Source: Bacteroidales bacterium (GTDB lineage: Bacteria > Bacteroidota > Bacteroidia > Bacteroidales > WCHB1-69). Taken from it: 51,445 bases of DNA. The DNA is taken from NCBI GenBank assembly GCA_024685175.1, contig JAIKWD010000020.1:1-51445 (forward strand). The letters run 5' to 3'. Below the pieces are notes generated by a model, which did no database searches, was not told where the DNA came from, and saw only the letters and a list, made by a program, of their open reading frames with translations. Below, in pieces: positions 1-14,827 of the stretch (positions are counted from its first letter, which is position 1; each line of letters opens with the position of its first letter). The position numbers and the translations under genes are program-made.

Positions 1-361
1 TGTCAACATCGACAAAAAGAACCGTCTGCATCCCTTCTATATCGTTTACCTTCGCAACGACGGCTCAGTGGTGGTCAACCACCTTTCGCCCAAGGAGCTG
101 CTCGACAAGTTCCGCAGCCTCTGCAAGGGAAAGAACATGCCGCAGACCTCGCTCTGTCGTGAGTTCAATAAGGAAACTCGTGACGGCTTCAAGATGGCGC
201 ACTACTCCAAGCTGCTGGGCGATGCCATCAACAGCATCATCACTGTGAAGGAAAACAGCGACATCGACAGCTTCCTCGAAGGCGTTCAGGGTGAGCTGTT
301 CACAAAGGAAATCAAAGGCTTGGATGACTTTGAACTAATCGACTTCTTGGTTGTAAAATAG
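1..361 (+). CDS. C-terminal end of an SNF2/helicase-type protein (5' end outside window)
   Basis: An open frame runs in from the left edge (codons in phase from base 2) and ends at TAG 359-361, giving about 119 residues. It reads as the tail of a large SNF2-like 'helicase-related protein': the stretch FYIVYLRNDGSVVVNHLSP followed by a helical segment and the ending FELIDFLVVK matches what I remember of that family's C-terminus. The ATPase motifs themselves lie outside the window, so the helicase call is recall, not something seen here. The DUF4391 gene follows after 9 bases. Helicase plus DUF4391 upstream of mod and res is a gene order I associate with type III R-M or helicase-methylase-ATPase defence loci. 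Codon use is GC-rich, like DUF4391, Res and the ends of Mod. Confidence 0.6.
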   Translation, partial: VNIDKKNRLHPFYIVYLRNDGSVVVNHLSPKELLDKFRSLCKGKNMPQTSLCREFNKETRDGFKMAHYSKLLGDAINSIITVKENSDIDSFLEGVQGELFTKEIKGLDDFELIDFLVVK

Positions 362-370
362 GAGGTGCTT

Positions 371-979
371 ATGTTAGGACTGCCAAAGACCACCGAGATA
401 GCGAAACAACTTCCCAAGAAGGCCATCTTCACGAAGTTTGAGTTGAAGCCCGCCCAACGCGACCGCTTCGATGCCGACATCAGCCGTATCGACATCGTGA
501 ACATGGTTTCGTCCAACACGGTGCCCGGCTTAAAGGAAGGTGAGCGCGTCAAGGAGTTCTATGTGTTGCTCGTGTCGTTGAAGCAAGAGGAGTATGATGA
601 GAAAAACATCATGCTGCTCGCCAAGCTAATCAAGCAGCACATGGTTTTCGCTTTGGTTTATCAGGACAGGGTACGTCTGGCAGTCGTGCACGAAAAGCTC
701 TTTGCCACCGACTGGGAGCCACTGGCCAATGCCGTTCTGCCTCTAATGGGCTTCGACATGGATAAGGTCTGGGAAAACATAGTAATGGCCATCGGCCATT
801 TTGAAGTGATGGAAGGCGTAACCATCGAGGAGCAAATTACCATCGACGGTGAAAAACATAAAATCATCAAGCAGATTGAAACGCTTGAAAAGAAGGCGAG
901 ATTGGAGAAACAGCCTAGAAGGAAACTGGAGCTATTTGAACAACTGAAGGAGTTGAAATCATCAATTGGTGAAGAGTAA
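371..979 (+). CDS. DUF4391 domain protein of defence locus
   Basis: A protein of 202 residues starting MLGLPKTTEIAKQLPKK. ATG 371 is preferred over the upstream GTG 365 because GGAGG at 361-365 sits at ideal spacing before 371 and overlaps the GTG. The fold appears mixed alpha/beta for about 150 residues and then a charged, helical, probably coiled-coil tail (EKKARLEKQPRRKLELFEQLKELK). I recognise the family as DUF4391, whose biochemical role is unknown to me. It is repeatedly found beside SNF2-type helicases and type III-like methylases, so it may be a structural or adaptor subunit. It starts 9 bases after the helicase stop and is surely co-transcribed with it. After its stop the composition becomes strongly AT-rich, marking the start of the RloAB insertion. 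Confidence 0.72.
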   Translation: MLGLPKTTEIAKQLPKKAIFTKFELKPAQRDRFDADISRIDIVNMVSSNTVPGLKEGERVKEFYVLLVSLKQEEYDEKNIMLLAKLIKQHMVFALVYQDRVRLAVVHEKLFATDWEPLANAVLPLMGFDMDKVWENIVMAIGHFEVMEGVTIEEQITIDGEKHKIIKQIETLEKKARLEKQPRRKLELFEQLKELKSSIGEE

Positions 980-1004
980 AACGAGTAGACGATTTAATGA
1001 ATGA

Positions 1005-1032
1005 ATTACAATATTTTGACTAAAATTGTAAT
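1005..1032. promoter_or_regulatory. Dyad upstream of rloAB promoter, possible operator
   Basis: ATTACAAT (1005-1012) and ATTGTAAT (1025-1032) are perfect inverted 8-mers separated by 12 bases. They lie about 27 bases upstream of the -33 element of the rloA promoter. The position and symmetry suit a dimeric regulator, but no regulator is encoded next to it, so the function is inferred only. Confidence 0.35.
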
Positions 1033-1058
1033 TTTATTACAAATATTGATTAAATTTA

Positions 1059-1088
1059 TTGAAAGAATAGATTTTTTGCTTATTTTTG
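1059..1088 (+). promoter_or_regulatory. Bacteroidota-type promoter for the RloA/RloB pair
   Basis: TTG at 1059-1061, 19 bases, then TATTTTTG at 1081-1088: a full match to the -33/-7 promoter pattern of this phylum. It sits 22 bases before the ATG of the AAA ATPase gene. This means the AT-rich pair, and possibly the mod operon after it, can be expressed independently of the helicase-DUF4391 transcript. Confidence 0.72.
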
Positions 1089-1110
1089 CACCGAATTAAT
1101 ACTATAATGC

Positions 1111-2322
1111 ATGATACGAGAATTTTGGGCAGAGAATTATCTCTCGATTAAAAACAGGCAAACTTTGAACTTTGAGTCCAAAACAAGCGATGACGAATGG
1201 GCTTCTGTTGATTTTGGAGGAGGGAAACGCATTAATAAGCTTGCGGTCATTTATGGCGCAAATGCAGCGGGAAAGTCAAACATCTTGACCGCACTTCTAA
1301 ACGTGTTTGAATTATTGTTTTCTCCGTGGGAAAACAAAACCGAACTAGTCAGAACAAGACGGCCATTTGCGTTATGTGCAGACAAACCCACCAAAATGCA
1401 CGTCTCGTTTTATGCTAATCGTATCCGTTACGACTATACAATTTCCTATACATCAGAGCATATTATTGACGAGCTTATGGAATGGTTTCCTAATGGTTCG
1501 AAATCACTTTTCTACGAACGTAGATTTGTGTCGGACGATTCACAAGCCTTTATGAAATTCGGTCAAAGCGTGGGCTTGTCTGCCAAAACAAAAGACATTT
1601 TTCTTCAAAACACGCTAAACAACCACACGGTTCTTTCCTGTTTTGGTAAAAGATCCTTTGAGGCTGATTCCAAACCCATTGCCAATCTGTATAATTGGAT
1701 AGGACGTTACATACATCGACTCGACAATCCACAGTTCACCTTGGAGAAATCACTTAAGCAGGTGTTGGAGAACGGAAAAGCCAAACAGTTTTACATCCAA
1801 ATGTTGGAAAAGGCTGATTTTAATATCGTGGACTTTCATGCTCAAACCGCTGTCGAGGATGAAGAACAGACAAAGATTTACTTTGATTGTAAGGCAGGAA
1901 CTGAGACCTTTAGTCTCGGTTTGGATGAACAATCTCAGGGAACCAAGAAGTTCTTAAGCAACTTGTCAACGCTTTATTCAGCAATTTCAAATCATCACAT
2001 TTATTTCATTGATGAAATAGATTCGGAACTACACGACGACTTGTTGCTGTATTTCTTGAATGCCTTCCTGATGAACTCCTCTGAATCGCAGTTGATTTTC
2101 ACCAGTCAAGAAACCTCTTTGTTGAATGAAGACTTGCTGAACAACCATCGCGATTTTGTGTTCTTTGCGGAGAAAAATCGCGATGGGGCATATTCTGAAT
2201 ACATGCGTGCCGATGAATTTGGATTGCACAAGAACTTGTCACTCTATAAGTCGTACCGAAACGGCCGTTTGGGAGCCGTTCCACAATTGGGTTCACCTTT
2301 AATGTATCTGGACCATGAATAA
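1111..2322 (+). CDS. AAA15-family ATPase, RloA/AbiLi-like
   Basis: A cytoplasmic ABC/SMC-type ATPase of 403 residues, predicted sensor or motor half of a two-gene anti-phage module. The N-terminus FWAENYLSIKNRQTLNF is the typical beta-strand opening of the AAA15/OLD-like class. Walker A is GANAAGKSN near residue 49, the signature-like QSQGTKKFL near 274, and Walker B IYFIDEIDSELHD near 297, followed by an H-loop-type region (IFTSQE). The stop overlaps the start of the next gene by 8 bases, so the two are translationally coupled. The partner has a RloB-type TOPRIM fold, which makes this the RloA/RloB (AbiLi/AbiLii) architecture as I know it. The gene is markedly more AT-rich than DUF4391 and has its own promoter, suggesting acquisition as a unit. 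PARIS AriA is related but pairs with a DUF4435 protein, which this is not. Confidence 0.8.
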   Translation: MIREFWAENYLSIKNRQTLNFESKTSDDEWASVDFGGGKRINKLAVIYGANAAGKSNILTALLNVFELLFSPWENKTELVRTRRPFALCADKPTKMHVSFYANRIRYDYTISYTSEHIIDELMEWFPNGSKSLFYERRFVSDDSQAFMKFGQSVGLSAKTKDIFLQNTLNNHTVLSCFGKRSFEADSKPIANLYNWIGRYIHRLDNPQFTLEKSLKQVLENGKAKQFYIQMLEKADFNIVDFHAQTAVEDEEQTKIYFDCKAGTETFSLGLDEQSQGTKKFLSNLSTLYSAISNHHIYFIDEIDSELHDDLLLYFLNAFLMNSSESQLIFTSQETSLLNEDLLNNHRDFVFFAEKNRDGAYSEYMRADEFGLHKNLSLYKSYRNGRLGAVPQLGSPLMYLDHE

Positions 2323-2929
2323 GAGAATGAAAGAGGCTATTGCCGTCATCGGCGAAGGCATCACGGAATACTATTTCTTCAATTCCATTAAGGATGAGTA
2401 CAGGCAGTTCAATCTAAAGCCTTCCTATCCCAAACACTCTTCCAGCCAGAAAGACCTTGAGAAAGAAATAAATAAGGCTATCGAAATGGAGTATTCGCAG
2501 ATATTCTGTGTGATTGACATGGACAACAAGAAAGAAGGCAAGGAACGACAAACGTATGAAAACCTAAAACGCCGATTGCAAGGGAAGCACACCGTCAAAC
2601 GAACTGGGTATCAATATGAAATACACTTCATTGAAACGGAACGATGCACCGAGCTCTTTTTCTTGTTCTATTTTGCCTACACCACGAAATGTTATGGCAA
2701 CCAAACGGAACTGTTGAATGAGCTTAACAAACATTGTCCTTACGACAAAAGCGAAAAATTCTTCCGCAGCCATGCCTTACACCAATACTTTCAGCAGAAT
2801 GGAGGAAACTTTATGCAAGCCTTGCGCAATGCCGCCAAATCGATGAAGGAAAAAGAAAAATCAGGCAGAGACTACACATATTCTCAAATGGCAGAATTAT
2901 TTGAAGCATTAGGAATTAAAGCAGAATAA
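2315..2929 (+). CDS. RloB-like TOPRIM nuclease, partner of the AAA15 ATPase
   Basis: A protein of 204 residues with a TOPRIM-like core: AVIGEGITEYYFF (residues about 9-21) holds the conserved glutamate, and FCVIDMDNKKEG (about 67-78) holds the DxD pair that binds metal in this fold. The C-terminal half is helical and basic (MKEKEKSGRDYTYSQMAEL). RloB-type proteins are the presumed toxic nuclease of the RloA/RloB or AbiL systems, released or activated by the ATPase on phage infection; that role is family knowledge, not shown here. The start overlaps the ATPase stop (ATGAATAA). Its own stop is 2 bases before the mod start, so all three genes can form one transcript. A DUF4435-type TOPRIM is a less likely alternative. 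Confidence 0.75.
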   Translation: MNKRMKEAIAVIGEGITEYYFFNSIKDEYRQFNLKPSYPKHSSSQKDLEKEINKAIEMEYSQIFCVIDMDNKKEGKERQTYENLKRRLQGKHTVKRTGYQYEIHFIETERCTELFFLFYFAYTTKCYGNQTELLNELNKHCPYDKSEKFFRSHALHQYFQQNGGNFMQALRNAAKSMKEKEKSGRDYTYSQMAELFEALGIKAE

Positions 2930-2931
2930 TT

Positions 2932-4869
2932 ATGGACAAACTCAATCTCCAAACCCACAACATCGTGGATGAAAACATAAAGAAAATTGCCGAACTCTTC
3001 CCCGACTGCCTCACCGAGCGCCTCGACGAGAACGGGAAGCCGGAAGTGGCGATAGACTTTGACCAGCTCCGGCAGGAGCTCTCAAAGGATATCATTGAAG
3101 GTCCCGAGGAACGCTACCAGTTCACCTGGCCCGACAAGCGCAACGCCATACGGTTGGCCAACGCGCCGACCACCGACACGCTGCGCCCCTGCCGCGAGGA
3201 AAGCGTCGATTTCGACAACACGCAGAACCTCTACATTGAGGGCGACAATCTCGAAGTGCTGAAACTGCTGCGCGAGAACTACTTGGGCAAGGTGAAGATG
3301 ATCTACATTGACCCGCCCTACAACACGGGCAACGATTTCGTGTATAACGACGACTTCGCCCAGACCACCAGCGACTATGTCCACAACAGCGGGCAGGAGG
3401 ACGAGGAGGGCAACCGCCTCGTGGTCAATACCGAGAGCAACGGCCGCTTCCACACCGATTGGCTCAACATGATTTATCCACGTTTGAAAGTGGCCAAGGA
3501 CTTACTGAGTGAGGATGGGGTGATTTTTATTTCGATTGATGATAATGAACTAAAGAACTTGGAGAATGTTTGCAATGAGATATTTGGAGAGGCTAATTTT
3601 GTCGCTAATATGATTTGGCAATCCACAGCAGGTTCTAATACGGGAACTGATATCGTTACGGTTACTGAAAATATACTTGTCTATACGAAATGCCGAAGCA
3701 AATTTGAATTTGATGGGAAAATTACAGACGATGAAACATTCTCGCTAGTTGATGAATATGTTGATGTAAGAGGAAAATATGCATTAGACAAGATGGACAG
3801 ACGTAGGGTTGCTGGACATTATTCAGAAGCACTCAATTTCCCAATAGAAATGCCTGATGGTTCTAGCAGATGGCCTGGTGGAACAAGTGAAAGAAATTCT
3901 GAAGGTTGGAATTATTTATGGAGTAAAACTAAAGTAAAATGGGGATTAGATAATGGTTATATTGTATTCAAAAAGTCTGGTTCAGAATGGAATGTATACA
4001 ATAAGAGATATGCGAGGGTTGACAATGAAGGTAAACCTTGTGAAAGATCTATTCCCTTTCGAAATTTAATTACATCTGACCAAAGCAATACAGCGCAAGG
4101 TACTGCTGAACAACGTTTGCTGTTTGATTTCAGACCTTTCGATTTTCCCAAGCCTACTACATTATTAAATCAACTGTTGCTAACCGCAGTTAGGCGCAAT
4201 AAAAACTCTCTTATCCTTGACTTTTTCTCTGGTTCTGCTACCACGGCTCACGCTGTCATGCAACTTAATGCAGAAGACGGTGGAAATCGAAAGTTTATCC
4301 TGGTGCAACTTCCAGAAGAAACGGTGGAAGATAGCGAAGCCTACAAGGCTGGCTACAAGAACATCTGCGAAATCGGCAAAGAGCGCATCCGTCGTGCGGG
4401 GAAGAAAATCGTTGAAGAGCAGAAAGCCAAACAAACCGATTTGTTCAGCGGCGAGAAAAAGCCCTTGGACATCGGATTCCGCGTGCTGAAACTCGACAGC
4501 TCCAACATGCAGGATGTGTATTACTCGCCCGAGCAGTTCAACGAGAGCCTGCTCTTCGAAGACAACATCAAGCACGACCGCACCGACGAGGATCTGCTCT
4601 TCCAAGCCATGATAGAGCTCGGCATCGAGCTTTCGGCCAAGATTGAGAAACGCGAAATCGCGGGTAAGACCGTCTGGAGCGTCGCCGAAGGCTACCTCAT
4701 GGCCTGCTTCGACAAGGACGTGAACGAGACCGCCATCACCGAAATCGCCCGCCAGCATCCCTACTACTTCGTCCTCCGCGACAGCAGCCTCGCCACGGAC
4801 AACGTAGCGGACAATTTTGAGCAGATTTGGGAGGAGTATAGTAAGGAGACGGTAAGGAGAATTATATAA
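2932..4869 (+). CDS. mod: Type III R-M DNA methyltransferase (Mod)
   Basis: A 645-residue site-specific DNA methyltransferase, probably adenine-N6, which recognises the target for both modification and restriction. The catalytic motif DPPYNTG lies near residue 127 and the AdoMet-binding motif DFFSGSATTAHAV near 430. Motif IV before motif I is the beta-class order of type III Mods. Residues between about 190 and 430 form the target recognition domain. A conserved C-terminal Mod domain follows (DIGFRVLKLDSSNMQDV). Base use changes sharply: the first about 180 codons and the last about 180 are GC-rich, while roughly 3480-4260 is AT-rich, so the specificity region looks exchanged. It starts 2 bases after rloB and is followed 8 bases later by the PIN gene; the matching Res is 3.5 kb downstream. 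Confidence 0.93.
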   Translation: MDKLNLQTHNIVDENIKKIAELFPDCLTERLDENGKPEVAIDFDQLRQELSKDIIEGPEERYQFTWPDKRNAIRLANAPTTDTLRPCREESVDFDNTQNLYIEGDNLEVLKLLRENYLGKVKMIYIDPPYNTGNDFVYNDDFAQTTSDYVHNSGQEDEEGNRLVVNTESNGRFHTDWLNMIYPRLKVAKDLLSEDGVIFISIDDNELKNLENVCNEIFGEANFVANMIWQSTAGSNTGTDIVTVTENILVYTKCRSKFEFDGKITDDETFSLVDEYVDVRGKYALDKMDRRRVAGHYSEALNFPIEMPDGSSRWPGGTSERNSEGWNYLWSKTKVKWGLDNGYIVFKKSGSEWNVYNKRYARVDNEGKPCERSIPFRNLITSDQSNTAQGTAEQRLLFDFRPFDFPKPTTLLNQLLLTAVRRNKNSLILDFFSGSATTAHAVMQLNAEDGGNRKFILVQLPEETVEDSEAYKAGYKNICEIGKERIRRAGKKIVEEQKAKQTDLFSGEKKPLDIGFRVLKLDSSNMQDVYYSPEQFNESLLFEDNIKHDRTDEDLLFQAMIELGIELSAKIEKREIAGKTVWSVAEGYLMACFDKDVNETAITEIARQHPYYFVLRDSSLATDNVADNFEQIWEEYSKETVRRII

Positions 4870-4877
4870 TAGGTTGT

Positions 4878-6650
4878 ATGATGAAATTTCCGAGAAAAAC
4901 ATTAGACATCACACAATACCTCCAGCAGGTAAAGTCACTTTTGAGTGATGATGAATGTGCAATTTTCATAGATACAAATGTTATCTCACAGTTGTATCGT
5001 TTGAATGATGCTGCTCGACAAGATTTTTATAATTGGATAGAACAATGCGGTAATCGATTCCATGTGCCAATTTGGGTGATTCATGAGTATTCAAATAAAG
5101 TTTACTCTCAAAAAACAAAAGAGTATTTGTCAGAATTGGATAGAATAAAAAAACAAGCGACAGAATTCAATAGCATTAGTGATTTTGTTAAAGGTTATGT
5201 AGGTGATTCATTGTTGCAAGGTTCAATGTACGAAGGAAAAATAGATGATTTAAAAAGGGATGTTGATAATATCAAAAATCTTTTGAATAAAATTGGTCGT
5301 ACAATTAACCAAAATTTGGAAGAACATCAACGCAAGGTTCATGACGAAATTGAGCTCAAATTGTCGCCAAAGTCGTTGACTTCAAATATCTATTCATTAA
5401 TTCCCGATCTCGATGTAGCGTATCGTCAACGATATGAAAACCAAATTCCGCCTGGCTATAAAGACGCTTCGAAAGAAGATAATAGAATAGGAGACCTCAT
5501 AATCTGGAAAGAGATTTTGGAATATTGTAAAACTAACTCTGTAAATAAGGCAATCTTGTTGTCTCGTGATAGCAAACAAGATATCGTTTATTCTCCAGAA
5601 ACACAAACCATCGAAGATGGTAGAAAAGCTGGAGAGTCTGAGAGGATTAAAATAGCCAAAGAGAGTCTGGTTTATGAATATATATCCATAACCGGAGGAA
5701 CAAATTTCTGCATAATAGATTTTAAAACTTTTGTGCGGATATTTGCTTCTGAGTACAGAGAATTAGCGAAGTCATTTCAGTTGGCGACCGCAGAAGAAGT
5801 GCAGGATGTTGATGGTATTTCTATTATTGCCACAGATATCCCTCGGACTTCTTCTTGTGAACAAGGAGACAACAGCGATACTGAAATAAGCGAAGGTGAT
5901 CCAGAATTGCCATTGTATTCGGGAACTGCTTTGCGGGATGGGCAATATGATTTAGATAATCCCCAGGGTTGTATGGATTCATATATAGAACAGTTGAAGT
6001 CGTATAATTGGTATATTCAAAATCCTGCTATCAATAATTTAATGGAACTAAACGAAGTGGGAGTGCCAGATACGGAAGTAAACAGAAGTTCCGTTTTTGT
6101 GTTAGGTAGGAATATTCTTCAAAGTGCCGAAGGATCATCAGCTAGTGCAATCTCTTTTATTGAAAATTTTTCATCTTACATTAAAAAATGGGAACTTTAT
6201 TTCAAGAAAGCATTGATAGATGGTATACTTTTTGAGATGTTTTTCAATCATAATGGTGAGATTCGACCTTTAGGTTTTAAATCAACCTTTTACGAAGAAA
6301 TAATAGAAAACATTAATAATTTACGGATAGACAATCCATTTTCTTTTATTAATAAATATTTATCCAAAGTGAAAAGTCGTTTCGTACCTAGGGTTGGCAC
6401 TAATGAAATCTATATATTCAAATTTACGATAGATTCAAATGGAAATACAAAATCATTAGTGTGCAATGGTTCAGACATCAGTGAAACTTTTACACAAGGA
6501 TTAGGACAACGGTTTTCTTTTCCAACCCAAGTCGATGATGCATTAATGAATTATTATGCAATTTTCAAGAATCAAATTAAAGTTGAAGGAATTTCATCTG
6601 ATGTCACAACCATCAATTTCATTGACGACCCTACGGAATTACCTTTTTAG
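4878..6650 (+). CDS. PIN-like domain protein (DUF4935/PIN_8 type) with large unknown C-terminal region
   Basis: A 590-residue protein. Residues 1-270 form a PIN-like ribonuclease domain: ECAIFIDTNVIS (first Asp), PIWVIHEYSNKV (Glu), PPGYKDASKEDNRIGDLIIW (Asp/Glu cluster and the GDLI helix), and AILLSRDSKQDIVY (last acidic positions). This is the layout of the PIN_8 family found beside R-M and other defence genes. Between the second and third motifs lies a long helical insert (about residues 70-190). The C-terminal 300 residues start with an acidic linker, then show no domain I recognise. The gene is strongly AT-rich and has only a weak AGG before its start at 4878 (ATG 4881 also possible). 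It sits between mod and res, which suggests a nucleolytic effector added to the system. The C-terminal half is the least understood part. Confidence 0.72.
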   Translation: MMKFPRKTLDITQYLQQVKSLLSDDECAIFIDTNVISQLYRLNDAARQDFYNWIEQCGNRFHVPIWVIHEYSNKVYSQKTKEYLSELDRIKKQATEFNSISDFVKGYVGDSLLQGSMYEGKIDDLKRDVDNIKNLLNKIGRTINQNLEEHQRKVHDEIELKLSPKSLTSNIYSLIPDLDVAYRQRYENQIPPGYKDASKEDNRIGDLIIWKEILEYCKTNSVNKAILLSRDSKQDIVYSPETQTIEDGRKAGESERIKIAKESLVYEYISITGGTNFCIIDFKTFVRIFASEYRELAKSFQLATAEEVQDVDGISIIATDIPRTSSCEQGDNSDTEISEGDPELPLYSGTALRDGQYDLDNPQGCMDSYIEQLKSYNWYIQNPAINNLMELNEVGVPDTEVNRSSVFVLGRNILQSAEGSSASAISFIENFSSYIKKWELYFKKALIDGILFEMFFNHNGEIRPLGFKSTFYEEIIENINNLRIDNPFSFINKYLSKVKSRFVPRVGTNEIYIFKFTIDSNGNTKSLVCNGSDISETFTQGLGQRFSFPTQVDDALMNYYAIFKNQIKVEGISSDVTTINFIDDPTELPF

Positions 6651-6753
6651 AGTTTAAAATCAGTCTATGTACACACAAACAAGCAACTGACCACATCGTT
6701 TAACATATTTAGGCTTAAGACAATAGAGTAATAATAATAGTGTTTCATTAACT

Positions 6754-7782
6754 ATGAAATTTAGAACCATTGAAGATTTGCAATCGTTGATTGACAACGA
6801 AATAGAGGAGTCCACCGAGTTGGAATACAAGAGCTCTTTTGCCACAGAAAATCAAAAATGGAAAAATGAATTGGCAAAGGATGTTAGTGCCATGGCCAAT
6901 GCAAATGGTGGAACTATTGTTTATGGAATTAGGGAAAAAGAAGGGAATAATGGTCATGCTATTCCTAATGAATTATTGCCAATTCAATACGATATCATGT
7001 CAAAGGACAGGTTGTCTCTTTTGTTGTCGTCAAGTATTCAACCAAAAATTGAAAATATAAAAATAAACACAATCTCTTTTGATGATAGGAGTGGATTCTT
7101 TGTTATTGAAATTCCACAAAGTGATACTGCACATCAAAACAAATTGACTCATTTGTATTACAAGCGTAGCAATGCTACCGTTTTAGAAATGGAGGATTAT
7201 GAAATTCGTGATGTGATGAACAGAACAAAGCATCCTATCGTCGAACTTGAATTCGAATTGCACAAAACGATATTACACATAACTGAAAAGCAGTTGCCTT
7301 TATTAAATTACAATGGAAGAAAGGAGAACACCTATTCTACAAAAACTGTATTTGATTTAAAATATAGATTAATCAACAAAGGCAGAGTATTCGCCAAGTA
7401 CATCAATTATTTCATTCACATTCCATTGGAATTATTACACGATGAGGAAAAAGATTATGTCGATGTTGATGGCGCGAATAATTGTTTTGATGTTATTGGA
7501 GATAACACAGTTAGAGATATAACCGCAGTCAAAGGATTAAGTAAAGAATACGGTCCTGCCAGATACGACCCTTTGTTGCCGAATGTAAAAGGAAGACGTA
7601 AAAGCGTTGAATTGAATTGTTGCAATGTTGATGACTTACTTACACTGCCGCCACTATGGTATTCAGTATTAGCAGATAATGCTCCTGAACGGAGAATCAT
7701 AGTTGAATGGAAGGATATTAAAGTTGTTGAAAAAGACAAGTCTGTAACAAAAGACCCTTTTAGTATACCACAAATATATTAG
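6754..7782 (+). CDS. AlbA_2 (Schlafen AlbA-like) domain protein
   Basis: 342 residues, AT-rich. The N-terminal about 150 residues are an AlbA_2 (divergent AAA-4) domain: ESTELEYKSSFA, then AKDVSAMANANGGTIVYGI, then FFVIEIPQSDTAH and YYKRSNATVLEMEDYEIR. These match the conserved core of that family, which binds nucleic acid and is fused to regulators or, in Schlafen relatives, has nuclease activity. The C-terminal about 190 residues look beta-rich and are not a domain I can name; there is no HATPase_c_4 or winged helix as in the usual long regulators. It lies 103 bases after the PIN gene with no clear promoter between. Its TAG is 2 bases before a relict res start. It could be a transcriptional regulator of the locus or an effector. 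Confidence 0.68.
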   Translation: MKFRTIEDLQSLIDNEIEESTELEYKSSFATENQKWKNELAKDVSAMANANGGTIVYGIREKEGNNGHAIPNELLPIQYDIMSKDRLSLLLSSSIQPKIENIKINTISFDDRSGFFVIEIPQSDTAHQNKLTHLYYKRSNATVLEMEDYEIRDVMNRTKHPIVELEFELHKTILHITEKQLPLLNYNGRKENTYSTKTVFDLKYRLINKGRVFAKYINYFIHIPLELLHDEEKDYVDVDGANNCFDVIGDNTVRDITAVKGLSKEYGPARYDPLLPNVKGRRKSVELNCCNVDDLLTLPPLWYSVLADNAPERRIIVEWKDIKVVEKDKSVTKDPFSIPQIY

Positions 7783-7784
7783 AT

Positions 7785-7880
7785 ATGAGATTCAAACTAC
7801 AACAACACCAGTCCGGTGCAGTGGAAAACGCTATAGCACCGCCATCAAATTTAGTATTTTCGCACTATGAAAACGCCTGA
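7785..7880 (+). pseudogene. Fossil 5' end of a second type III res gene
   Basis: ATG 7785 opens a 31-codon frame beginning MRFKLQQHQSGAVENA and ending in TGA at 7878-7880. The true Res at 8418 begins MKFKFKIQQYQTDAVES. The two align over the first about 16 residues (MxFKxQQxQxxAVE), after which similarity is lost. It sits directly after the AlbA gene stop, where a res gene would be expected in a mod-X-Y-res operon. The simplest reading is a donor res start left at a recombination junction. Chance similarity is possible but unlikely given both sequence and position. Confidence 0.6.
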
Positions 7881-8421
7881 CTATTATTTGAATCAGCCCG
7901 AGGGGCAGACCTACGACAAGAAAAGCGGTCGTATCTTGCCCGGGCGTGTCCGCCTCAACAACATGCGAACCACCCATTTTTCCCGCAACCCCAAGATTGC
8001 CGCTTTCATGAAAGAATATGAGTTCATCCGTGAGTTCGGTGAGGGCGTTGACCGGATGTATAGAGAGTTAGAGGAAGGAGGATGGCCAAAGCCTGTATTC
8101 AAGCAGGACGATTTTATGCTTCGTGCAAGTTTGAGCGCAATCGCCATTGCATCGAAAAAGCCGATTGAGTTTACTGAAAATGCACTGAAAAATGCACTGA
8201 AAAATGCACCCAAAACAGAGGCAGAAATTCTTTCACTTATTATGGAAAAGCCATCGATTTCCTTGGATGATATGGCATCCGCCATAAAGGTATCCCGAAG
8301 GACCGTTGCTAATAAGATTAAAGCTCTCCAGGAGCAAAGAATTGTTATTAGAATCGGACCGGCAAAAGGTGGTCAATGGTCGATTGACAAAGAAAATCTC
8401 ATACATTATTTTGCGAAATGA
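7867..8421 (+). pseudogene. C-terminal fragment of AlbA_2/HATPase_c_4 winged-helix regulator
   Basis: 184 residues at most, with no upstream start because TAG at 7852 closes the frame. From about residue 24, PGRVRLNNMRTTHFSRNPKIAAF and FIREFGEGVDRMYRELEEGGWPKP are the end of the HATPase_c_4 (RecG C-terminal-like) domain. After a linker comes a winged-helix segment (ISLDDMASAIKVSRRTVANKIKALQ). The normal AlbA_2 domain and first half of HATPase_c_4 are missing, so this is a 5'-truncated regulator. It is GC-richer than the AlbA gene upstream, with the change near 7885. Its TGA overlaps the res ATG (ATGA), so if translated it would couple Res expression. A 12-base unit (ACTGAAAAATGC) is repeated about three times near 8172-8210, coding for LKNA repeats. 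It may still act as a small DNA-binding protein. Confidence 0.65.
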
Positions 8422-11400
8422 AATTCAAATTCAAAATCCAGCAATACCAGACCGATGCGGTGGAAAGTACGGTGAGTGTGTTCGCGGGACAACCCTCGAA
8501 GACCAACGCACAGTACCGCCGCGACATGGGCAAGCAGAAACAGCAGTTGAAAGCTGAGTTTGAGGAGGAGTATGTGGGTTACCGCAATGCCGATGTGGAA
8601 CTCAACACCAATCAGTTGTTGGAAAACATCCACCATCAGCAGGTGCAGAACGACATCCCGCTGAGCAAGTCCTTAACGGCCACCAACGGCCTCGGTGCCT
8701 GCTCGTTGGATGTGGAGATGGAGACGGGTACGGGCAAGACCTACGTCTATATCAAGACCATGTTCGAGATGAACAAGCGCTTTGGCTGGTCGAAGTTCAT
8801 CGTGGTGGTGCCCAGCATCGCCATCCGAGAGGGCGTCTATAAGAGCTTCACCATGCTGGAGGAGCATTTTATGGAACTCTACGGAAAAAAAGCCCGCTAT
8901 TTCATCTACAACAGCGCCAACCTCACCCAAATCGACTCGTTCAGCAGCGACGCCAGCATCAACGTGATGATCATTAACGTGCAGGCGTTCAACACCTCGT
9001 TTAAGGAAGGCGCGGCCAACAAGGAGGCGCGTATCATTTACTCCAAGCGCGACGATTTCCAAAGCCGTCGTCCCATCGATGTGATTGCCGCCAACCGTCC
9101 CATCATCATCATGGACGAGCCGCAGAAGATGGAGGGCGAAGCCACGCAAAAGGCCTTGCGCAACTTCAAGCCGCTGTTTGTGCTCAACTATTCCGCCACC
9201 CACAAAACCTCGCACAACTGCATCTATGCGCTTGATGCCTACGATGCCTATAAGCAACGCTTGGTGAAGAAAATCCAGGTAAAGGGCATTACGGTGCAAA
9301 ACCTGTTGGGTACACAAAGCTACATCTATTTCGACAGCATTATTCTTTCGAAGAACCATGCTCCAGTGGTCAGACTTGAAATCGAGGTGAAAGGCGCCGC
9401 TGCCACCCGACGGCAACTCTGCAAGCTTGAGCAAGGTGATTCGCTGTTTGCCGTTTCGCAACTTCCTGCCTACAAGGATTTTGTCATCACGGAAATCAAC
9501 CCCTTGACGAACTCCGTCTATTTCCAAAACGGCAAACAACTGCGTCAAGGCGAGGTGATGGGCGATGTCAGCGAAAAAGCCATTCAACAGATTCAGATTC
9601 GGGAAACCATCAAATCCCACTTCGAAAAAGAACGGGCATTGTTCCAGCAAGGCATAAAGACCCTTTCGCTGTTCTTCATCGACGAGGTGGCCAACTACAA
9701 GAGCTATGATGCGGATGGAAACGAGGTGCAAGGTCCGCTGTGGAAGATGTTTGAGGACGAATACAACCGCTATCTGAACGAAAACTTGACTTTGTTTGAG
9801 GACGATTATCAGAAATACCTGCGCCGTTTTACCGCTGCACAAGTACATAACGGCTATTTCTCCATCGACAAGAAAGGCCATTCAATTGATAGTGAGGTGA
9901 AACGCGGGAAGGACACATCGGACGACATTTCTGCTTACGACTTGATTTTGAAAAACAAGGAACGCCTGTTGAGTTTTGATGAGCCAACACGATTCATTTT
10001 CTCCCACTCCGCCTTGCGCGAAGGTTGGGACAATCCCAATGTGTTCCAAATCTGCACGTTGCGTCACGCCAACTCCAGCACCGCCAAACGTCAGGAAGTG
10101 GGTCGTGGTTTGCGCATCTGCGTTGATAACGACGGCAACCGCATGGACAAGGAACGCTTGGGCGATGCCGTACACGACACCAACAAACTGACCGTCATCG
10201 CCAACGAGAACTACAGTTCTTTTGTTGATGCTTTGCAGAAAGAGACCAAAGACACTTTGCGCGAACGTCCGACACAGGCCACGGTCGATTACTTCAAAGG
10301 GGTAACCGTCAAAGTGGGTGTGGAGAAACATACCATCTCGGAGCAGGAGGCTGCCAGTATCGTCAGTTATTTGTACGACAACGACTATATCGACGAAAAG
10401 GGCAACATTCTGCAAGACTATCATACCGATATGGAGAAGGGTACTTTGGCTCCGATGAGCAAAAAACTGCAACCCATTGAAGAGCAGGTGCACAAACTGA
10501 TTCAGAGTATCTTTGATCCTGCCGCTTTGGAAGACATGGTGGAAGATGCCAACGGCAAGGCAGAAGTGGTGAACGAGCGTTTGAACGACAATGCAGATAA
10601 GAAGGAATTCAAAGCCTTGTGGAATGAAATCAACCACCGCTATGTCTATACGGTGCATTACGACAGCGAAGAACTGATTCAGAAAGCCATCGCCGCCATC
10701 AACAGCGAGTTGAATGTCACGCAGCTGAAGTATGTGGTGACCACAGGCACGCAAGGCGATGACGAGTTGGATTTCACTGGTGAACAAAGCACCCGTACAA
10801 AAGAGATGCGCGATGTGTCAACCAGCAATGTGCCTTACGATTTGGTGGGCGACATCGCCAAAGCAGCCACGCTGACCCGCCGCACGGTCACCCGCATTTT
10901 GAAAGGGATTCAGCGGTCGAAGCTGTACATGTTCAAGAACAACCCCGAAGAGTTCATCCGCAAGGTTAGCCATATCATCCGCGAACAGAAAGCCACGATG
11001 ATTGTGGAGCACATCAGCTACAACCGCACGGAAAACCAATACGATTCCGACATCTTCACCAAGGAGAAAAGTCGTCAAACGGTGGATAAAGCCTACGAAG
11101 CCAAGAAGCACATTTTGGATTATGTATTCCCCGACAGCCAAGGCGAACGAGACTTTGCTGAAGACCTGGACAAAGCGGAAGAAGTGTGCGTCTATGCCAA
11201 ATTGCCGAGGTCGTTCCAAATCCCGACGCCAGTGGGCAATTACGCTCCCGATTGGGCTATCGCTTTCAACGACAACATGGGCATCAAGCATGTGTTCTTC
11301 ATAGCCGAAACCAAAGGCTCGATGGATTCCATGCAGCTGAAAGGCGTGGAAAAAGCGAAGATAGATTGCGCAAAGAAGTTGTTCAACAACATATCCACTT

Positions 11401-11468
11401 CTAATGTCCGTTACCACGAAGTGGGAGACTTTCAGACGATGCTGAATGTGATAAAAGCAATAGAGTAA
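8418..11468 (+). CDS. res: Type III R-M restriction subunit (Res)
   Basis: A 1016-residue SF2 helicase-nuclease that translocates or signals along DNA and cuts when two unmodified sites are met, in complex with Mod. Motif I is METGTGKTYVYIK near residue 102, motif II MDEPQKMEGEA near 233, motif III NYSATH, and motif VI QEVGRGLRICVD near 560. The C-terminal PD-(D/E)xK endonuclease is visible as ERDFAEDL near 910, APDWAIAF near 943 and IAETKGSMD near 964. Length suits the family. All catalytic elements are intact, so this copy should be functional. It is translationally coupled to the preceding fragment. The next gene begins 4 bases after its stop. Its separation from mod by more than 3.5 kb of unrelated genes is unusual. 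Confidence 0.93.
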   Translation: MKFKFKIQQYQTDAVESTVSVFAGQPSKTNAQYRRDMGKQKQQLKAEFEEEYVGYRNADVELNTNQLLENIHHQQVQNDIPLSKSLTATNGLGACSLDVEMETGTGKTYVYIKTMFEMNKRFGWSKFIVVVPSIAIREGVYKSFTMLEEHFMELYGKKARYFIYNSANLTQIDSFSSDASINVMIINVQAFNTSFKEGAANKEARIIYSKRDDFQSRRPIDVIAANRPIIIMDEPQKMEGEATQKALRNFKPLFVLNYSATHKTSHNCIYALDAYDAYKQRLVKKIQVKGITVQNLLGTQSYIYFDSIILSKNHAPVVRLEIEVKGAAATRRQLCKLEQGDSLFAVSQLPAYKDFVITEINPLTNSVYFQNGKQLRQGEVMGDVSEKAIQQIQIRETIKSHFEKERALFQQGIKTLSLFFIDEVANYKSYDADGNEVQGPLWKMFEDEYNRYLNENLTLFEDDYQKYLRRFTAAQVHNGYFSIDKKGHSIDSEVKRGKDTSDDISAYDLILKNKERLLSFDEPTRFIFSHSALREGWDNPNVFQICTLRHANSSTAKRQEVGRGLRICVDNDGNRMDKERLGDAVHDTNKLTVIANENYSSFVDALQKETKDTLRERPTQATVDYFKGVTVKVGVEKHTISEQEAASIVSYLYDNDYIDEKGNILQDYHTDMEKGTLAPMSKKLQPIEEQVHKLIQSIFDPAALEDMVEDANGKAEVVNERLNDNADKKEFKALWNEINHRYVYTVHYDSEELIQKAIAAINSELNVTQLKYVVTTGTQGDDELDFTGEQSTRTKEMRDVSTSNVPYDLVGDIAKAATLTRRTVTRILKGIQRSKLYMFKNNPEEFIRKVSHIIREQKATMIVEHISYNRTENQYDSDIFTKEKSRQTVDKAYEAKKHILDYVFPDSQGERDFAEDLDKAEEVCVYAKLPRSFQIPTPVGNYAPDWAIAFNDNMGIKHVFFIAETKGSMDSMQLKGVEKAKIDCAKKLFNNISTSNVRYHEVGDFQTMLNVIKAIE

Positions 11469-11472
11469 AACA

Positions 11473-14361
11473 ATGTTGCCATCAAGCCCCATACTCGTCA
11501 TATTTAGCTTTGCTATCATCATCGCCGCAATAATAGCCATCTACTGCTTTGTTTCCAAACGGAAATTCAAGCAAAAGGTAGATGCCGTTGCAACCAAAAC
11601 AAGACTGCTGTCCGCTGCCTTGGATGAGCTTTTCAAGCCAGTGAAGAGAACCACCCAAGAAGATGTCGACCATTTCCTTGCCGATAATCACGATGCCATC
11701 AATGCCGCAAAAGAGATTTCCGAAACCCACAGCAGGTTCAAAGACCTGCTTAAACCCTCTGGCTTATACGAGTTCCTGGCAAAAGTCCAACCCGACGCCC
11801 TGCAATCAAGCCTTGCCGAAAACCACACCGTTTACGATGCCATCGATGAGTTGACCAATCTGTGCATTGAGCCACAGCAGAGGTTTAATGCCCTCATGGC
11901 ACCCGACCATTATTTTGCCTACTCCGAAATGGAACGCTTCAAAGACTCCCTCGCAGCGGTCGAAGCCTGCGAAAAGAAAGTCTTTCCCAAGTACGCCCAA
12001 TTCGTTACCAACCCTGCTGTAAAACAGCTACTCAGCATCAAGAAAGACATCGACCGCCTACGCGAGACCCACAACAAAGAGTTTGTCACAAAAGAGTTGG
12101 AAGCCAACCAAACCTACTTTGATACGGTTTTGGGCAAATACCCGCTCGACCCTCAGCAACGCGATTCCATCGTTAAGCTTGAAGACAACTGTCTGGTCAT
12201 TGCCAGCGCTGGCAGCGGCAAAACCTCAACCATCCTTGGCAAAGCCAAGTACATGGTCGAGAAGCGCAACATCGACCCCTCAAAGGTGCTGCTCATTACC
12301 TTCACCCGTAAAGCTGCCAACGAACTCCATGAACGCATGAAAATAGAAGGTGTTACCTGCTGCACTTTCCACGCCTTGGCCTATCATATTATCTCTCAGG
12401 TGACAGGACAAGCACCGTCCATCTGTGATACCGATGTGCCGCTCAATGTATTTAAGAATCTCATCCTCAACAATCCCCAGTTCCTGCATTCGGTAAACGA
12501 CTACATCGTCAACCAGCAGTCCCTTATGCGCTTGGAACACGACTACACCGATGCCTTTTCCTACTATGAGGACAGGAAAAAATACGGCATCCAAGCCCTG
12601 TTCCCTGATGCCGATGGCAAAATGATTTTCACCCGAAGCGAGGAAGAGAAACGCCTTGTATCACTCCTCACCAAATGGGGAGTTTCCTTCAGATATGAAA
12701 GCCCTTACCAGTTTAACACGGCAACCAACGAAAAACGACAATACAAACCTGATTTCACCATCTATTACCAAGACACACAACGCCAGTGGAAATGGGTCTA
12801 TCTGGAACATTTCGGTATTGACTCCAGTGGCAATGTGCCGCTTTGGTTCGGCGAAGGCACACGTGGCGGTTGGAAAGCGGCCAACGACAAATACAAAGAG
12901 GGCATTGCATGGAAACGTGCCACACATCGCCAATATGGCACCACGCTCATCGAAACCACCAGTGCCGATTTCCGCAATGGCACTGTCGAGGAAAAACTGC
13001 TGAACCAACTCCGTCGCGCTGGCGTCCCCATCAAAGAACGCTCCGACCAAGAGCTATATGATCTTTTGATCCAGCGCAACCGCAAGCTGGAAAAGTCGGT
13101 CTATACTTTGATTCTTTCCTTCATCACGCTGATGAAGGCCAATGAGAAAACCATTGACAGCCTGCTGGACGACTTGCGCGACCATCCCGACAACCGTAAC
13201 AAGAGCGTCCTTGTAAACATCGTCAAGCCCTTCTATGAAGAGTACGAAAAAACATTGCGCGAAAGCTATGAAATGGACTTCACCGATGCCATCATACAGG
13301 CCACAGACCTTTGCAGGGAAGGCTTGTGGAAACACTACGACTGCATCTTGGTTGACGAGTTCCAGGACATATCTGTTGACCGCTACAAATTCCTACAGGC
13401 CTTGCGCAGCGATGAACCGCGAACTAAACTGTATTGCGTCGGCGACGACTGGCAATCCATCTTCCGTTTCACTGGCTCAGATATGTCGCTTTTCTATGAG
13501 TTTGAGAAATACTTTGGCCACACTGAGCTGTGCAAGATTGAAACCACCCACCGTTTCCATCAGCCGCTCATAGACAGGTCTTCTGAGTTCATCATCAAGA
13601 ACACCGAGCAAAAGGTCAAGACTATAAAAACGCCCAAGGATGACAAATACAGCACATATCTCACATTCGAGAAATGCGATGGCGAAGATAAAGATGGCGT
13701 GCTGAAGAAAGTGGAAGAGCTGGTCGCCAAATTGCCGCCCAACCAATCCATTTTGCTATTGGGCAGATACAACTATGATGCAATGTCCGTGGGCTTCACT
13801 GGCAAGCTCGACATGAAAGACATGCGTATTATGGTGAAGATAGGGGGAAGGGAGATTCCCTTCCTGACGGTTCATTCAGCCAAAGGCCTCGAAGCCGACA
13901 ACGTCATTTTGGTCAACTGCAACCAAGGCGCATACGGATTCCCTTCACTCATCGAGGACGATCCCATCTTGGACTTTGTGCTGAGCAAGAAAGAGTCCTA
14001 TCCTTTTGCTGAGGAACGTCGTCTATTCTATGTTGCCATGACCCGTGCAAGGATGCACATGTATGTTCTCTATGACCAAAGAAAGCCTTCGCCATTCATC
14101 AGCGAGTTCCTCTTGAAGATAGAGCGAGGCTCCTATCTCTGCCCGAAATGTCTGGAAGGAAAGATAATTGGAGTAAAAGACGGTTTGGCTTCCAATGGAG
14201 CCAAATATCGTTGCTACAAATGCACCAACAAGGAAAGCGGCTGCGACTTCTTTGAAATAAAATATGGCGATCTGACACCACCGGGAATAAAAGTCACAGA
14301 TGATATGACCGTACAGGATGTAGAGAGACTAAGAGAAGTAAGAAGGAGAGTTAAAAAGTGA
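11473..14361 (+). CDS. Membrane-anchored UvrD/HelD-like helicase with nuclease insertion and zinc ribbon
   Basis: 962 residues. A single membrane segment occupies residues about 6-26 (ILVIFSFAIIIAAIIAIYCF), then helical coils to about 215. Walker A ASAGSGKTST is near 244, followed by LITFTRKAANELHERM. An inserted domain near 400-500 contains QYKPDFTIYY and YLEHFGID, a PD-(D/E)xK-like arrangement with an RGGWKAANDKY helix. Walker B is ILVDEFQDIS, then GDDWQSIFRFTGSD, HSAKGLEADNVI and FYVAMTRARMHMY complete an SF1A helicase. The C-terminus has a zinc ribbon with two CxxC pairs (CPKC, CYKC) and a further Cys. The resemblance is to helicase IV (HelD) proteins. It starts 4 bases after res, so it belongs to the same operon and probably unwinds or degrades DNA for the defence locus. 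Whether it is required for restriction is unknown. Confidence 0.82.
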   Translation: MLPSSPILVIFSFAIIIAAIIAIYCFVSKRKFKQKVDAVATKTRLLSAALDELFKPVKRTTQEDVDHFLADNHDAINAAKEISETHSRFKDLLKPSGLYEFLAKVQPDALQSSLAENHTVYDAIDELTNLCIEPQQRFNALMAPDHYFAYSEMERFKDSLAAVEACEKKVFPKYAQFVTNPAVKQLLSIKKDIDRLRETHNKEFVTKELEANQTYFDTVLGKYPLDPQQRDSIVKLEDNCLVIASAGSGKTSTILGKAKYMVEKRNIDPSKVLLITFTRKAANELHERMKIEGVTCCTFHALAYHIISQVTGQAPSICDTDVPLNVFKNLILNNPQFLHSVNDYIVNQQSLMRLEHDYTDAFSYYEDRKKYGIQALFPDADGKMIFTRSEEEKRLVSLLTKWGVSFRYESPYQFNTATNEKRQYKPDFTIYYQDTQRQWKWVYLEHFGIDSSGNVPLWFGEGTRGGWKAANDKYKEGIAWKRATHRQYGTTLIETTSADFRNGTVEEKLLNQLRRAGVPIKERSDQELYDLLIQRNRKLEKSVYTLILSFITLMKANEKTIDSLLDDLRDHPDNRNKSVLVNIVKPFYEEYEKTLRESYEMDFTDAIIQATDLCREGLWKHYDCILVDEFQDISVDRYKFLQALRSDEPRTKLYCVGDDWQSIFRFTGSDMSLFYEFEKYFGHTELCKIETTHRFHQPLIDRSSEFIIKNTEQKVKTIKTPKDDKYSTYLTFEKCDGEDKDGVLKKVEELVAKLPPNQSILLLGRYNYDAMSVGFTGKLDMKDMRIMVKIGGREIPFLTVHSAKGLEADNVILVNCNQGAYGFPSLIEDDPILDFVLSKKESYPFAEERRLFYVAMTRARMHMYVLYDQRKPSPFISEFLLKIERGSYLCPKCLEGKIIGVKDGLASNGAKYRCYKCTNKESGCDFFEIKYGDLTPPGIKVTDDMTVQDVERLREVRRRVKK

Positions 14362-14739: not shown

Positions 14740-14827
<88 letters not shown>

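What the first reader, a model, noticed from the sequence alone, without database searches (positions are those of the whole stretch)
1..14361. Type III R-M locus used as a nested insertion site for other defence modules
Reading one strand: helicase tail, DUF4391, RloA, RloB, Mod, PIN, AlbA, fossil res start, regulator fragment, Res, HelD-like helicase. GC-rich backbone genes (helicase, DUF4391, ends of Mod, Res, HelD) alternate with AT-rich blocks (RloAB; Mod specificity region; PIN-AlbA). mod and res stay in one direction but are 3.5 kb apart. This suggests a composite system in which PIN and AlbA proteins may act with Mod/Res. I do not know this exact gene set as a named system.
Basis: partly seen in the sequence, partly recalled or inferred. 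Interest (0 to 1): 0.78.

Follow-up and report, generated by a model that had tools for sequence, protein, structure and literature searches.

The report
Restriction operon that stacks defence genes
A bacterial restriction operon against foreign DNA has two built-in gaps that are filled, from genome to genome, with different likely anti-virus genes, and scars left between the inserted genes suggest that they pile up when two copies of the same operon merge.

Summary
Window 1-14361 is a Type III R-M operon (helicase tail, DUF4391, Mod, Res) with extra genes in two gaps: AbiL-like RloA/RloB between DUF4391 and mod; PIN_8, SLFN_AlbA_2 and a truncated AlbA_2/HATPase-type gene between mod and res. 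A UvrD-like gene follows. The fossil res start (from 7785) is real. The layout recurs in several phyla: mod|res gaps hold co-directional cargo in 40 of 90 slots (set 1; one contig twice) and 22 of 66 (IMG/VR); DUF4391|mod gaps in 21 of 49 and 18 of 40. Cargo is diverse: Fic, Abi, TIR, YhcG, AAA+DUF4276, TPR, AlbA_2. Seven loci with 81-92% identical res show six cargo combinations. Ends of core genes lie inside the gaps: 10 of 206 end queries versus 0 of 2202 interior controls. Four scars are composite (5' end of the downstream core gene, then 3' end of the upstream one), as expected if two operon copies merge and redundant core genes are deleted. PIN+AlbA as one unit with Mod/Res is not supported: PIN is 1 of 108 cargo genes; AlbA_2-type genes recur (18 of 108). 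Embedding in immune operons is known; these Type III gaps and scars I found nowhere in the papers searched.

The parts
2..361 (+). C-terminal part of HKD/Snf2-type helicase, first core gene, cut by contig start
   Evidence: PADLOC C3a139 E 3e-6; longer homologues in L038 and others
365..979 (+). DUF4391, core gene
   Evidence: Pfam E 1e-29
1111..2929 (+). DUF4391|mod gap cargo: RloA-like AAA ATPase (1111-2322) and RloB (2315-2929), an AbiL-like pair
   Evidence: same gap in L053 and L059
2932..4869 (+). mod, Type III DNA methyltransferase, core gene with AT-rich centre
4878..6650 (+). mod|res gap cargo 1: PIN_8 nuclease-like protein; acidic residues D32, E70, D196, D206, D235 shared with its PIN-domain relatives
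6754..7782 (+). mod|res gap cargo 2: SLFN_AlbA_2 protein
   Evidence: homologues in the same gap of L060 and L061
7785..7835 (+). Scar: fossil 5' end of a res gene (to about res nt 48)
   Evidence: like junctions in L046 14060 and L060 8328
7867..8421 (+). mod|res gap cargo 3: internally deleted AlbA_2/HATPase_c_4/HTH-type gene (HATPase C-terminal part and HTH left)
8418..11468 (+). res, Type III restriction endonuclease/helicase, core gene
11473..14361 (+). UvrD-like helicase gene 4 bp after res; possible further cargo after res
   Evidence: no like-sized ORF directly after res in the maps, except that homology was not tested for each
14740..14827 (-). tRNA-Ser(tga) at the right border of the lower-GC block

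Best explanation
The locus is one allele of a widespread Type III R-M operon (helicase, DUF4391, mod, res) with two preferred cargo gaps, DUF4391|mod and mod|res. Shown: unrelated co-directional genes, many matching known anti-phage families, sit there at coupling distance from the core genes, and the cargo turns over much faster than res. Shown: fossil 5' ends of the downstream core gene and/or 3' ends of the upstream core gene lie in the gaps, nearly always beside stacked cargo. Inferred: modules stack when two copies of the same operon, with different cargo in the same gap, come together (uptake plus partly illegitimate recombination) and the redundant stretch from early res (or mod) to late mod (or DUF4391) is deleted, leaving X1-scar-X2. 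Long repeats would recombine and lose a module again, which would explain why surviving scars are short. Inferred: cargo is co-expressed with R-M and adds other, often abortive, defences, some perhaps acting when restriction fails. In the window the PIN and AlbA_2 genes are two such modules, not subunits of Mod/Res.
For: Occupancy and direction, core-gene copies left out: set 1 mod|res 40 of 90 slots, 63 cargo genes with and 3 against the operon; DUF4391|mod 21 of 49, 33 vs 4; IMG/VR 22 of 66, 23 vs 1, and 18 of 40, 24 vs 1. Without the doubled contig and the four loci of another Res type: 36 of 85, 55 vs 2. Median distance from mod stop to first cargo ORF 5 bp and from last cargo stop to res -1 bp (62 slots). 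Seven loci with res 81-92% identical in DNA show six cargo-family combinations in mod|res; L053 and L170 share two families, but at 63% and 38% protein identity. Gap GC 0.34-0.39, mod and res 0.44-0.50. Cargo families: Pfam; PADLOC: SoFic, AbiD, AbiJ, PDC-S02, PDC-S04, PDC-S66. Scars: 10 of 206 core-end queries score >=22 in the gap, 0 of 2202 interior controls. Composite scars in L059, L115 and twice in L089. Scarred slots: 8 of 30 with two or more cargo genes, 1 of 65 with one, Fisher p 3e-4. Four slots with a second whole mod in the DUF4391|mod gap look like undeleted intermediates (L123; L234, L235, L266). Complete plasmid records show the same gaps filled.
Against: Most multi-cargo slots (22 of 30) show no scar at this sensitivity, so stacking without scars, or by other routes, is common. 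The score cut of 22 was set after seeing the scores: at 20 it is 10 ends vs 1 control, at 18 it is 12 vs 13. The window's scar and those of L035 (mod|res) and L046 show only the 5' fossil; L112, L206, L226 and L056 only 3' fossils. L206 has a scar but one called cargo gene; in L056 the scar lies after the last cargo gene, next to mod. The two weakest scores are 24 (window, L226); the window's is backed by L046 and L060. None of 6 occupied plasmid slots has a scar. Six scar loci are titled MAG. L133 has a res-start remnant with no res after it, so remnants also arise by plain decay. No intermediate was caught in the act and no experiment was run. The defence role of most cargo rests on family names.
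Confidence: 0.77

Rival explanations
1. Site-specific insertion: cargo modules integrate at a fixed site near nt 50 of res (or in mod) and carry a replacement 5' end, like integrative elements in tRNA genes.
For: Several res fossils start exactly at ATG and end near nt 48-65 (window, L035, L059, L060, L046).
Against: No recombinase among the window genes or the 30 cargo-type proteins scanned; composite scars contain the 3' end of the upstream core gene (L059, L115, L089), which this model does not predict; res codons 1-20 are not unusually conserved at synonymous sites (6th lowest of 50 windows); mod fossils run to nt 88.
Confidence: 0.1
2. Fixed composite system: PIN and AlbA proteins are working parts of this Mod/Res complex.
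For: Tight co-directional packing; AlbA_2-type genes recur in the gap in several phyla.
Against: PIN is 1 of 108 cargo genes; AlbA occurs in the gap without PIN (L060, L061); a fossil res start follows AlbA; loci with closely related res mostly have other cargo.
Confidence: 0.1
3. Ordinary defence-island crowding with no special role for the operon's gaps.
For: Defence-type genes also flank several plasmid loci.
Against: Cargo inside the operon is nearly all co-directional and at coupling distance, the helicase|DUF4391 gap is seldom used (8 of 47), and scars consist of core-gene ends, not interiors.
Confidence: 0.07
4. Assembly artefact: chimeric joins in metagenome assemblies create the fossils.
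For: Six scar loci (L056, L059, L060, L089, L112, L115) are titled MAG; 0 of 6 occupied plasmid slots have a scar.
Against: Like fossil-AlbA_2 junctions, with sequence divergence, are in three assemblies (window, L046, L060); filled gaps also occur in complete plasmid records.
Confidence: 0.05

Closest known systems
Type III R-M systems with an extra helicase gene 5' of mod (Murray et al. 2021, PMC8259958; abstract and passages seen)
   Same: Helicase-like gene upstream of mod and res; widespread
   Different: The passages seen describe no cargo between the genes and no scars; DUF4391 was not among the terms I looked for there
Defence genes embedded in immune operons ('guilt by embedding', Payne et al. 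2024 preprint; not held, known here only through PMC12988326 and PMC12629846, passages seen)
   Same: Unrelated defence genes inside another system's genes; several cargo proteins here match PADLOC PDC models
   Different: Here the host operon is Type III with two preferred gaps, and core-gene fossils record stacking; whether the preprint covers Type III could not be checked
Type I R-M operons with inserts: DarTG2 between hsdS and hsdR (PMC12255303, passages seen), PrrC in EcoprrI (PMC12707154, passages seen)
   Same: Effector gene inside an R-M operon; the hsdS-hsdR site was called a potential recombination hotspot
   Different: Type I, not III; no fossil start or stop scars in the passages seen
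AbiL (RloA/RloB) pair
   Same: PADLOC AbiLi and AbiLii hits for window 1111-2929
   Different: Here a cargo module in the DUF4391|mod gap
Integron cassette arrays (recalled)
   Same: Serial stacking of modules at fixed positions with repeats between them
   Different: No integrase found in the window block, no specially conserved site; repeats are remnants of core genes

Membership tests
Type III R-M system | Mod with N6/N4 methyltransferase domain beside Res with SF2 helicase and endonuclease domains | tested here: met
   N6_N4_Mtase; ResIII, RE_endonuc; MTase_III, REase_III
Type III R-M system | Restriction and methylation activity | not testable with these tools
   needs experiment
Helicase-containing Type III subgroup (Murray 2021) | Helicase-like gene 5' of mod | tested here: met
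   tail only in the window (contig cut), whole in many relatives
Helicase-containing Type III subgroup (Murray 2021) | m4C modification in the characterised members | not testable with these tools
   -
Embedded defence genes in an immune operon | Unrelated, co-directional, variable genes between core genes of one system | tested here: met
Embedded defence genes in an immune operon | Cargo protects against phage | not testable with these tools
   family matches only
AbiL | AAA ATPase plus RloB-type partner, adjacent | tested here: met
   AbiLi E 2.7e-63, AbiLii E 1.7e-12; overlapping ORFs
PrrC-type guard of R-M | Effector activated when the host R-M enzyme is inhibited | not testable with these tools
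   no PrrC model among the hits listed (list for the UvrD gene capped at 25 of 47)
Integron-like cassette system or integrative element | Recombinase and conserved attachment site | tested here: not met
   no recombinase among the window 1-14361 genes; no extra synonymous conservation at the res 5' end

The most novel reading that the evidence does not exclude
The ends of mod, res and DUF4391 act as shared homology arms, so that this Type III operon is a recombination platform: incoming alleles of the same operon donate whole gap contents across species, modules accumulate by operon merging, and the short scars date and delimit each module. Embedded modules may be guards that fire when a phage blocks Mod/Res. 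The scars would then be a general marker for finding new defence modules and their exact boundaries.
Probability: 0.3. Interest if true: 0.75.

Novelty: new variant of a known kind. Interest (0 to 1): 0.62.

Why it matters
How defence genes come to sit inside other immune operons is, as far as the papers I saw go, inferred from gene order. Here the DNA keeps a physical record of steps: fossil starts and ends of the host operon's core genes between modules. That makes the assembly route of a layered defence locus testable, marks module borders without annotation, and points to many unstudied genes in the gaps of a common but little-studied R-M operon (one held paper mentions DUF4391).

Tried and rejected
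PIN as a recurrent partner: 3 other genomes of 103 in the family search and 9 others of 392 in the order search have a match, mostly over one domain; no core gene in the stretches around these 12 places (15 loci, three of them longer stretches of the same places); four plasmid contexts without R-M (4 of 24 matching records looked at). A specially conserved site at the res start: codons 1-20 rank 6th lowest of 50 windows for synonymous change among 7 close loci and 9th among 12. Res-start pattern in 393 order genomes: 7 genomes match; besides the window, five places are starts of full res matches, and the sixth (G037, L133) is a res-start remnant of about 80 nt after a 378-aa ATPase ORF and running into another gene, with no res: decay, not a stacked gap. 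A res fossil in L112: none (score 10). E. coli: 10 of 5426 genomes match the plasmid query at megablast level, and none of the 10 places has a large insertion between mod and res. Plasmid scars: 0 of 6 slots. In some searches the interior controls that passed (3 of 377, 9 of 205) all lie in four slots holding a second mod gene; those slots were left out and the scar table of 96. In one search two of 12 interior controls passed the looser criterion (scores 17 and 20), hence the raw cut of 22, chosen after seeing the scores. HD slots were not used. Two whole-plus-fragment mod or res genes first counted as cargo (L078, L123, L186) were removed; the 108 cargo genes still include these three. L036 and L052 were dropped as duplicates; L069 and L175 are one contig and both stay in set 1 except where stated. 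Structure prediction of DUF4391 was not available.
Full report
What is there. The window is contig C19 of a 2.1 Mb genome, from its first base. On one strand lie a helicase tail, DUF4391, an RloA/RloB (AbiL-like) pair, Mod, a PIN_8 protein, an SLFN_AlbA_2 protein, a remnant of a res start, a HATPase_c_4/HTH fragment, Res and a UvrD-like helicase; six of the nine joints between these genes are overlaps or gaps of 8 bp or less. A tRNA-Ser and chromosomal genes follow.

The host operon is a common one. Maps of these and of 38 stretches from unnamed related genomes show the backbone helicase, DUF4391, mod, res again and again. Complete plasmid records carry it too. Murray et al. 2021 (PMC8259958; abstract and passages) described the extra helicase in Type III systems. 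One held paper mentions DUF4391 (listing only).

Two gaps take cargo. Counting co-directional genes of 90 aa or more that are not core genes, set 1 has 40 of 90 mod|res gaps and 21 of 49 DUF4391|mod gaps filled, against 8 of 47 helicase|DUF4391 gaps. Without the contig present twice and the four loci L041-L044, which have another Res type and a similar pair of extra genes, mod|res is 36 of 85. In the 78 IMG/VR loci the figures are 22 of 66 and 18 of 40. In these two gaps, over both sets, 143 cargo ORFs run with the operon and 9 ORFs of that size against it. Distances to core genes are those of coupled genes. In 12 plasmid records 4 mod|res gaps are filled: AAA+DUF4276 in Aeromonas media, an 'RNA-binding domain' protein in Phaeobacter and Sulfitobacter, and a 453-aa ORF in Acinetobacter gerneri.

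What the cargo is. The 108 cargo genes of set 1 (three of them core-gene copies or pieces) fall into 61 clusters. The largest, by single-linkage similarity, is AlbA_2-type (18 genes in 15 loci; of six members scanned five hit SLFN_AlbA_2 and the window fragment hits HATPase_c_4). Of 30 cargo-type proteins scanned against Pfam, 26 matched something at E 0.001 (two only below the curated cut-off) and 4 nothing (three of the 30 are from L046 and L115, outside the slot set). Families include TPR, YhcG nuclease, Abi_C, Abi_2, Fic, SIR2_2, TIR, AAA+DUF4276, DUF2971 and DUF4365. Of 10 scanned against PADLOC at 1e-10, 8 matched, among them SoFic, AbiD, AbiJ, PDC-S02, PDC-S04 and PDC-S66; one AlbA_2 protein matched part of a pAgo model.

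Turnover. Seven loci whose res genes are 81-92% identical in DNA (window, L035, L053, L059, L061, L170, L171) all have filled mod|res gaps, with six combinations of cargo families. L053 and L170 share an Abi_C-type plus TPR pair, at 63% and 38% protein identity though their res genes are 89% identical in DNA; TPR proteins occur in four of the seven, and the window's AlbA is 66% identical to that of L061. The gap is 8-16 points poorer in GC than res. All seven have, by size, an AAA-plus-200-aa pair upstream of mod; homology to the window's RloA/RloB was seen for some of them.

Scars. A copy of roughly the first 48-65 nt of res, starting at the ATG just after a cargo gene and followed by another cargo gene, is present in the window, L035, L059, L060 and twice in L046. 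Window, L060 and the first L046 scar have related downstream genes and are probably one old event. Self-comparison of loci and local alignment found mod starts in L089 and L035, mod ends in L112 and L206, and DUF4391 ends in L089, L056 and L226. With a raw score of 22 or more, 10 of 206 core-end queries hit the gap interior against 0 of 2202 interior queries, over 103 slots and leaving out four slots with a second whole mod gene; the cut was chosen afterwards (10 vs 1 at score 20, 12 vs 13 at score 18). Scarred slots: 8 of 30 with two or more cargo genes, 1 of 65 with one (Fisher p 3e-4).

Composite scars tell the order of events. L059 has res 1-50 directly followed by mod -22..-1. L115 (contig start, outside the slot survey) has a res start followed by the last 22 codons of a mod, 95% identical in protein to the L126 Mod C-terminus (E 4.5e-10). 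L089 has two scars of mod 1-88 followed by DUF4391 3' sequence. Downstream-core 5' end, then upstream-core 3' end, is what remains if two copies of the operon stand head to tail and the stretch between is lost. L123, L234, L235 and L266, with a second mod in the gap, could be the stage before. Short scars may be survivors, since long repeats would recombine out the module (general knowledge of recombination, not tested).

The window by this reading. RloA/RloB fill the first gap. In the second, PIN, AlbA and a decayed AlbA_2/HATPase/HTH-type gene are stacked, with a scar between the last two. The decayed gene has lost its AlbA_2 domain by an in-frame internal deletion relative to L046. PIN keeps the acidic residues shared by its PIN-domain relatives, so it may be an active nuclease.

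PIN and AlbA as partners. PIN is a single case in 108; relatives looked at have no R-M genes beside them. AlbA relatives of 465 and 469 bits sit in the mod|res gap of L060 and L061, without PIN; a family search found one close copy, the same G080 locus as L061, and one distant one whose context I did not check. So AlbA has a weak case for a link to this operon, PIN none.

Function. Most likely (inferred) Mod/Res give restriction and the modules add other defences under shared transcription. Guards of R-M are known for Type I (PrrC, PMC12707154, passages); nothing here shows that for this cargo.

Novelty. Embedded defence genes in Type I operons and 'guilt by embedding' are in print (PMC12255303, PMC12629846, PMC12988326; passages). 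My searches for genes between mod and res of Type III operons, or for embedded defence in R-M operons, returned no report of these gaps or scars in the listings and passages I saw. The library lacks preprints and most subscription journals.

Noticed in passing
window 11473-14361: UvrD-like helicase gene begins 4 bp after the res stop, with partial PADLOC similarity to RTasHel and GajB. Plasmid loci L284 and L285 have AAA ATPase genes 67 and 16 bp after res, so a third cargo position after res is possible.
   Followed up: partly
window 14740-14827: tRNA-Ser(tga) marks the border between the lower-GC defence block and the chromosome (GC 0.53 beyond 14900).
   Followed up: no
L107 3020, 6847, 7655, 9821, 15731: Repeats of about 160 bp lie near the junctions of the operon in an Akkermansiaceae genome; nature unknown.
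   Followed up: no
L123, L234, L235, L266: A second mod gene lies in the DUF4391|mod gap, so one operon may carry two specificities.
   Followed up: partly
L046 12417-15834: Decayed relative: mod reduced to its two ends, the second res start cut after about 65 nt and followed by the start of another AlbA_2-like gene at the contig end; Abi_C gene open.
   Followed up: partly
L133 1501-1580: Res-start remnant of about 80 nt after a 378-aa ATPase ORF, running into another gene, no res: a decayed operon end in another family of the order.
   Followed up: partly
L095 6780, 7521, 9026, 9543: Repeats of 28-61 bp (and longer imperfect ones) at and near gene borders of the operon.
   Followed up: no
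L288 4612-5838: IS256 transposase gene interrupts the mod region in a Sulfitobacter plasmid.
   Followed up: no
L041-L044: A different Res (about 840-890 aa) goes with two extra genes between mod and res (about 1015 aa, shorter in L044, and 200-230 aa) in four family loci; looks like a fixed set rather than variable cargo.
   Followed up: no
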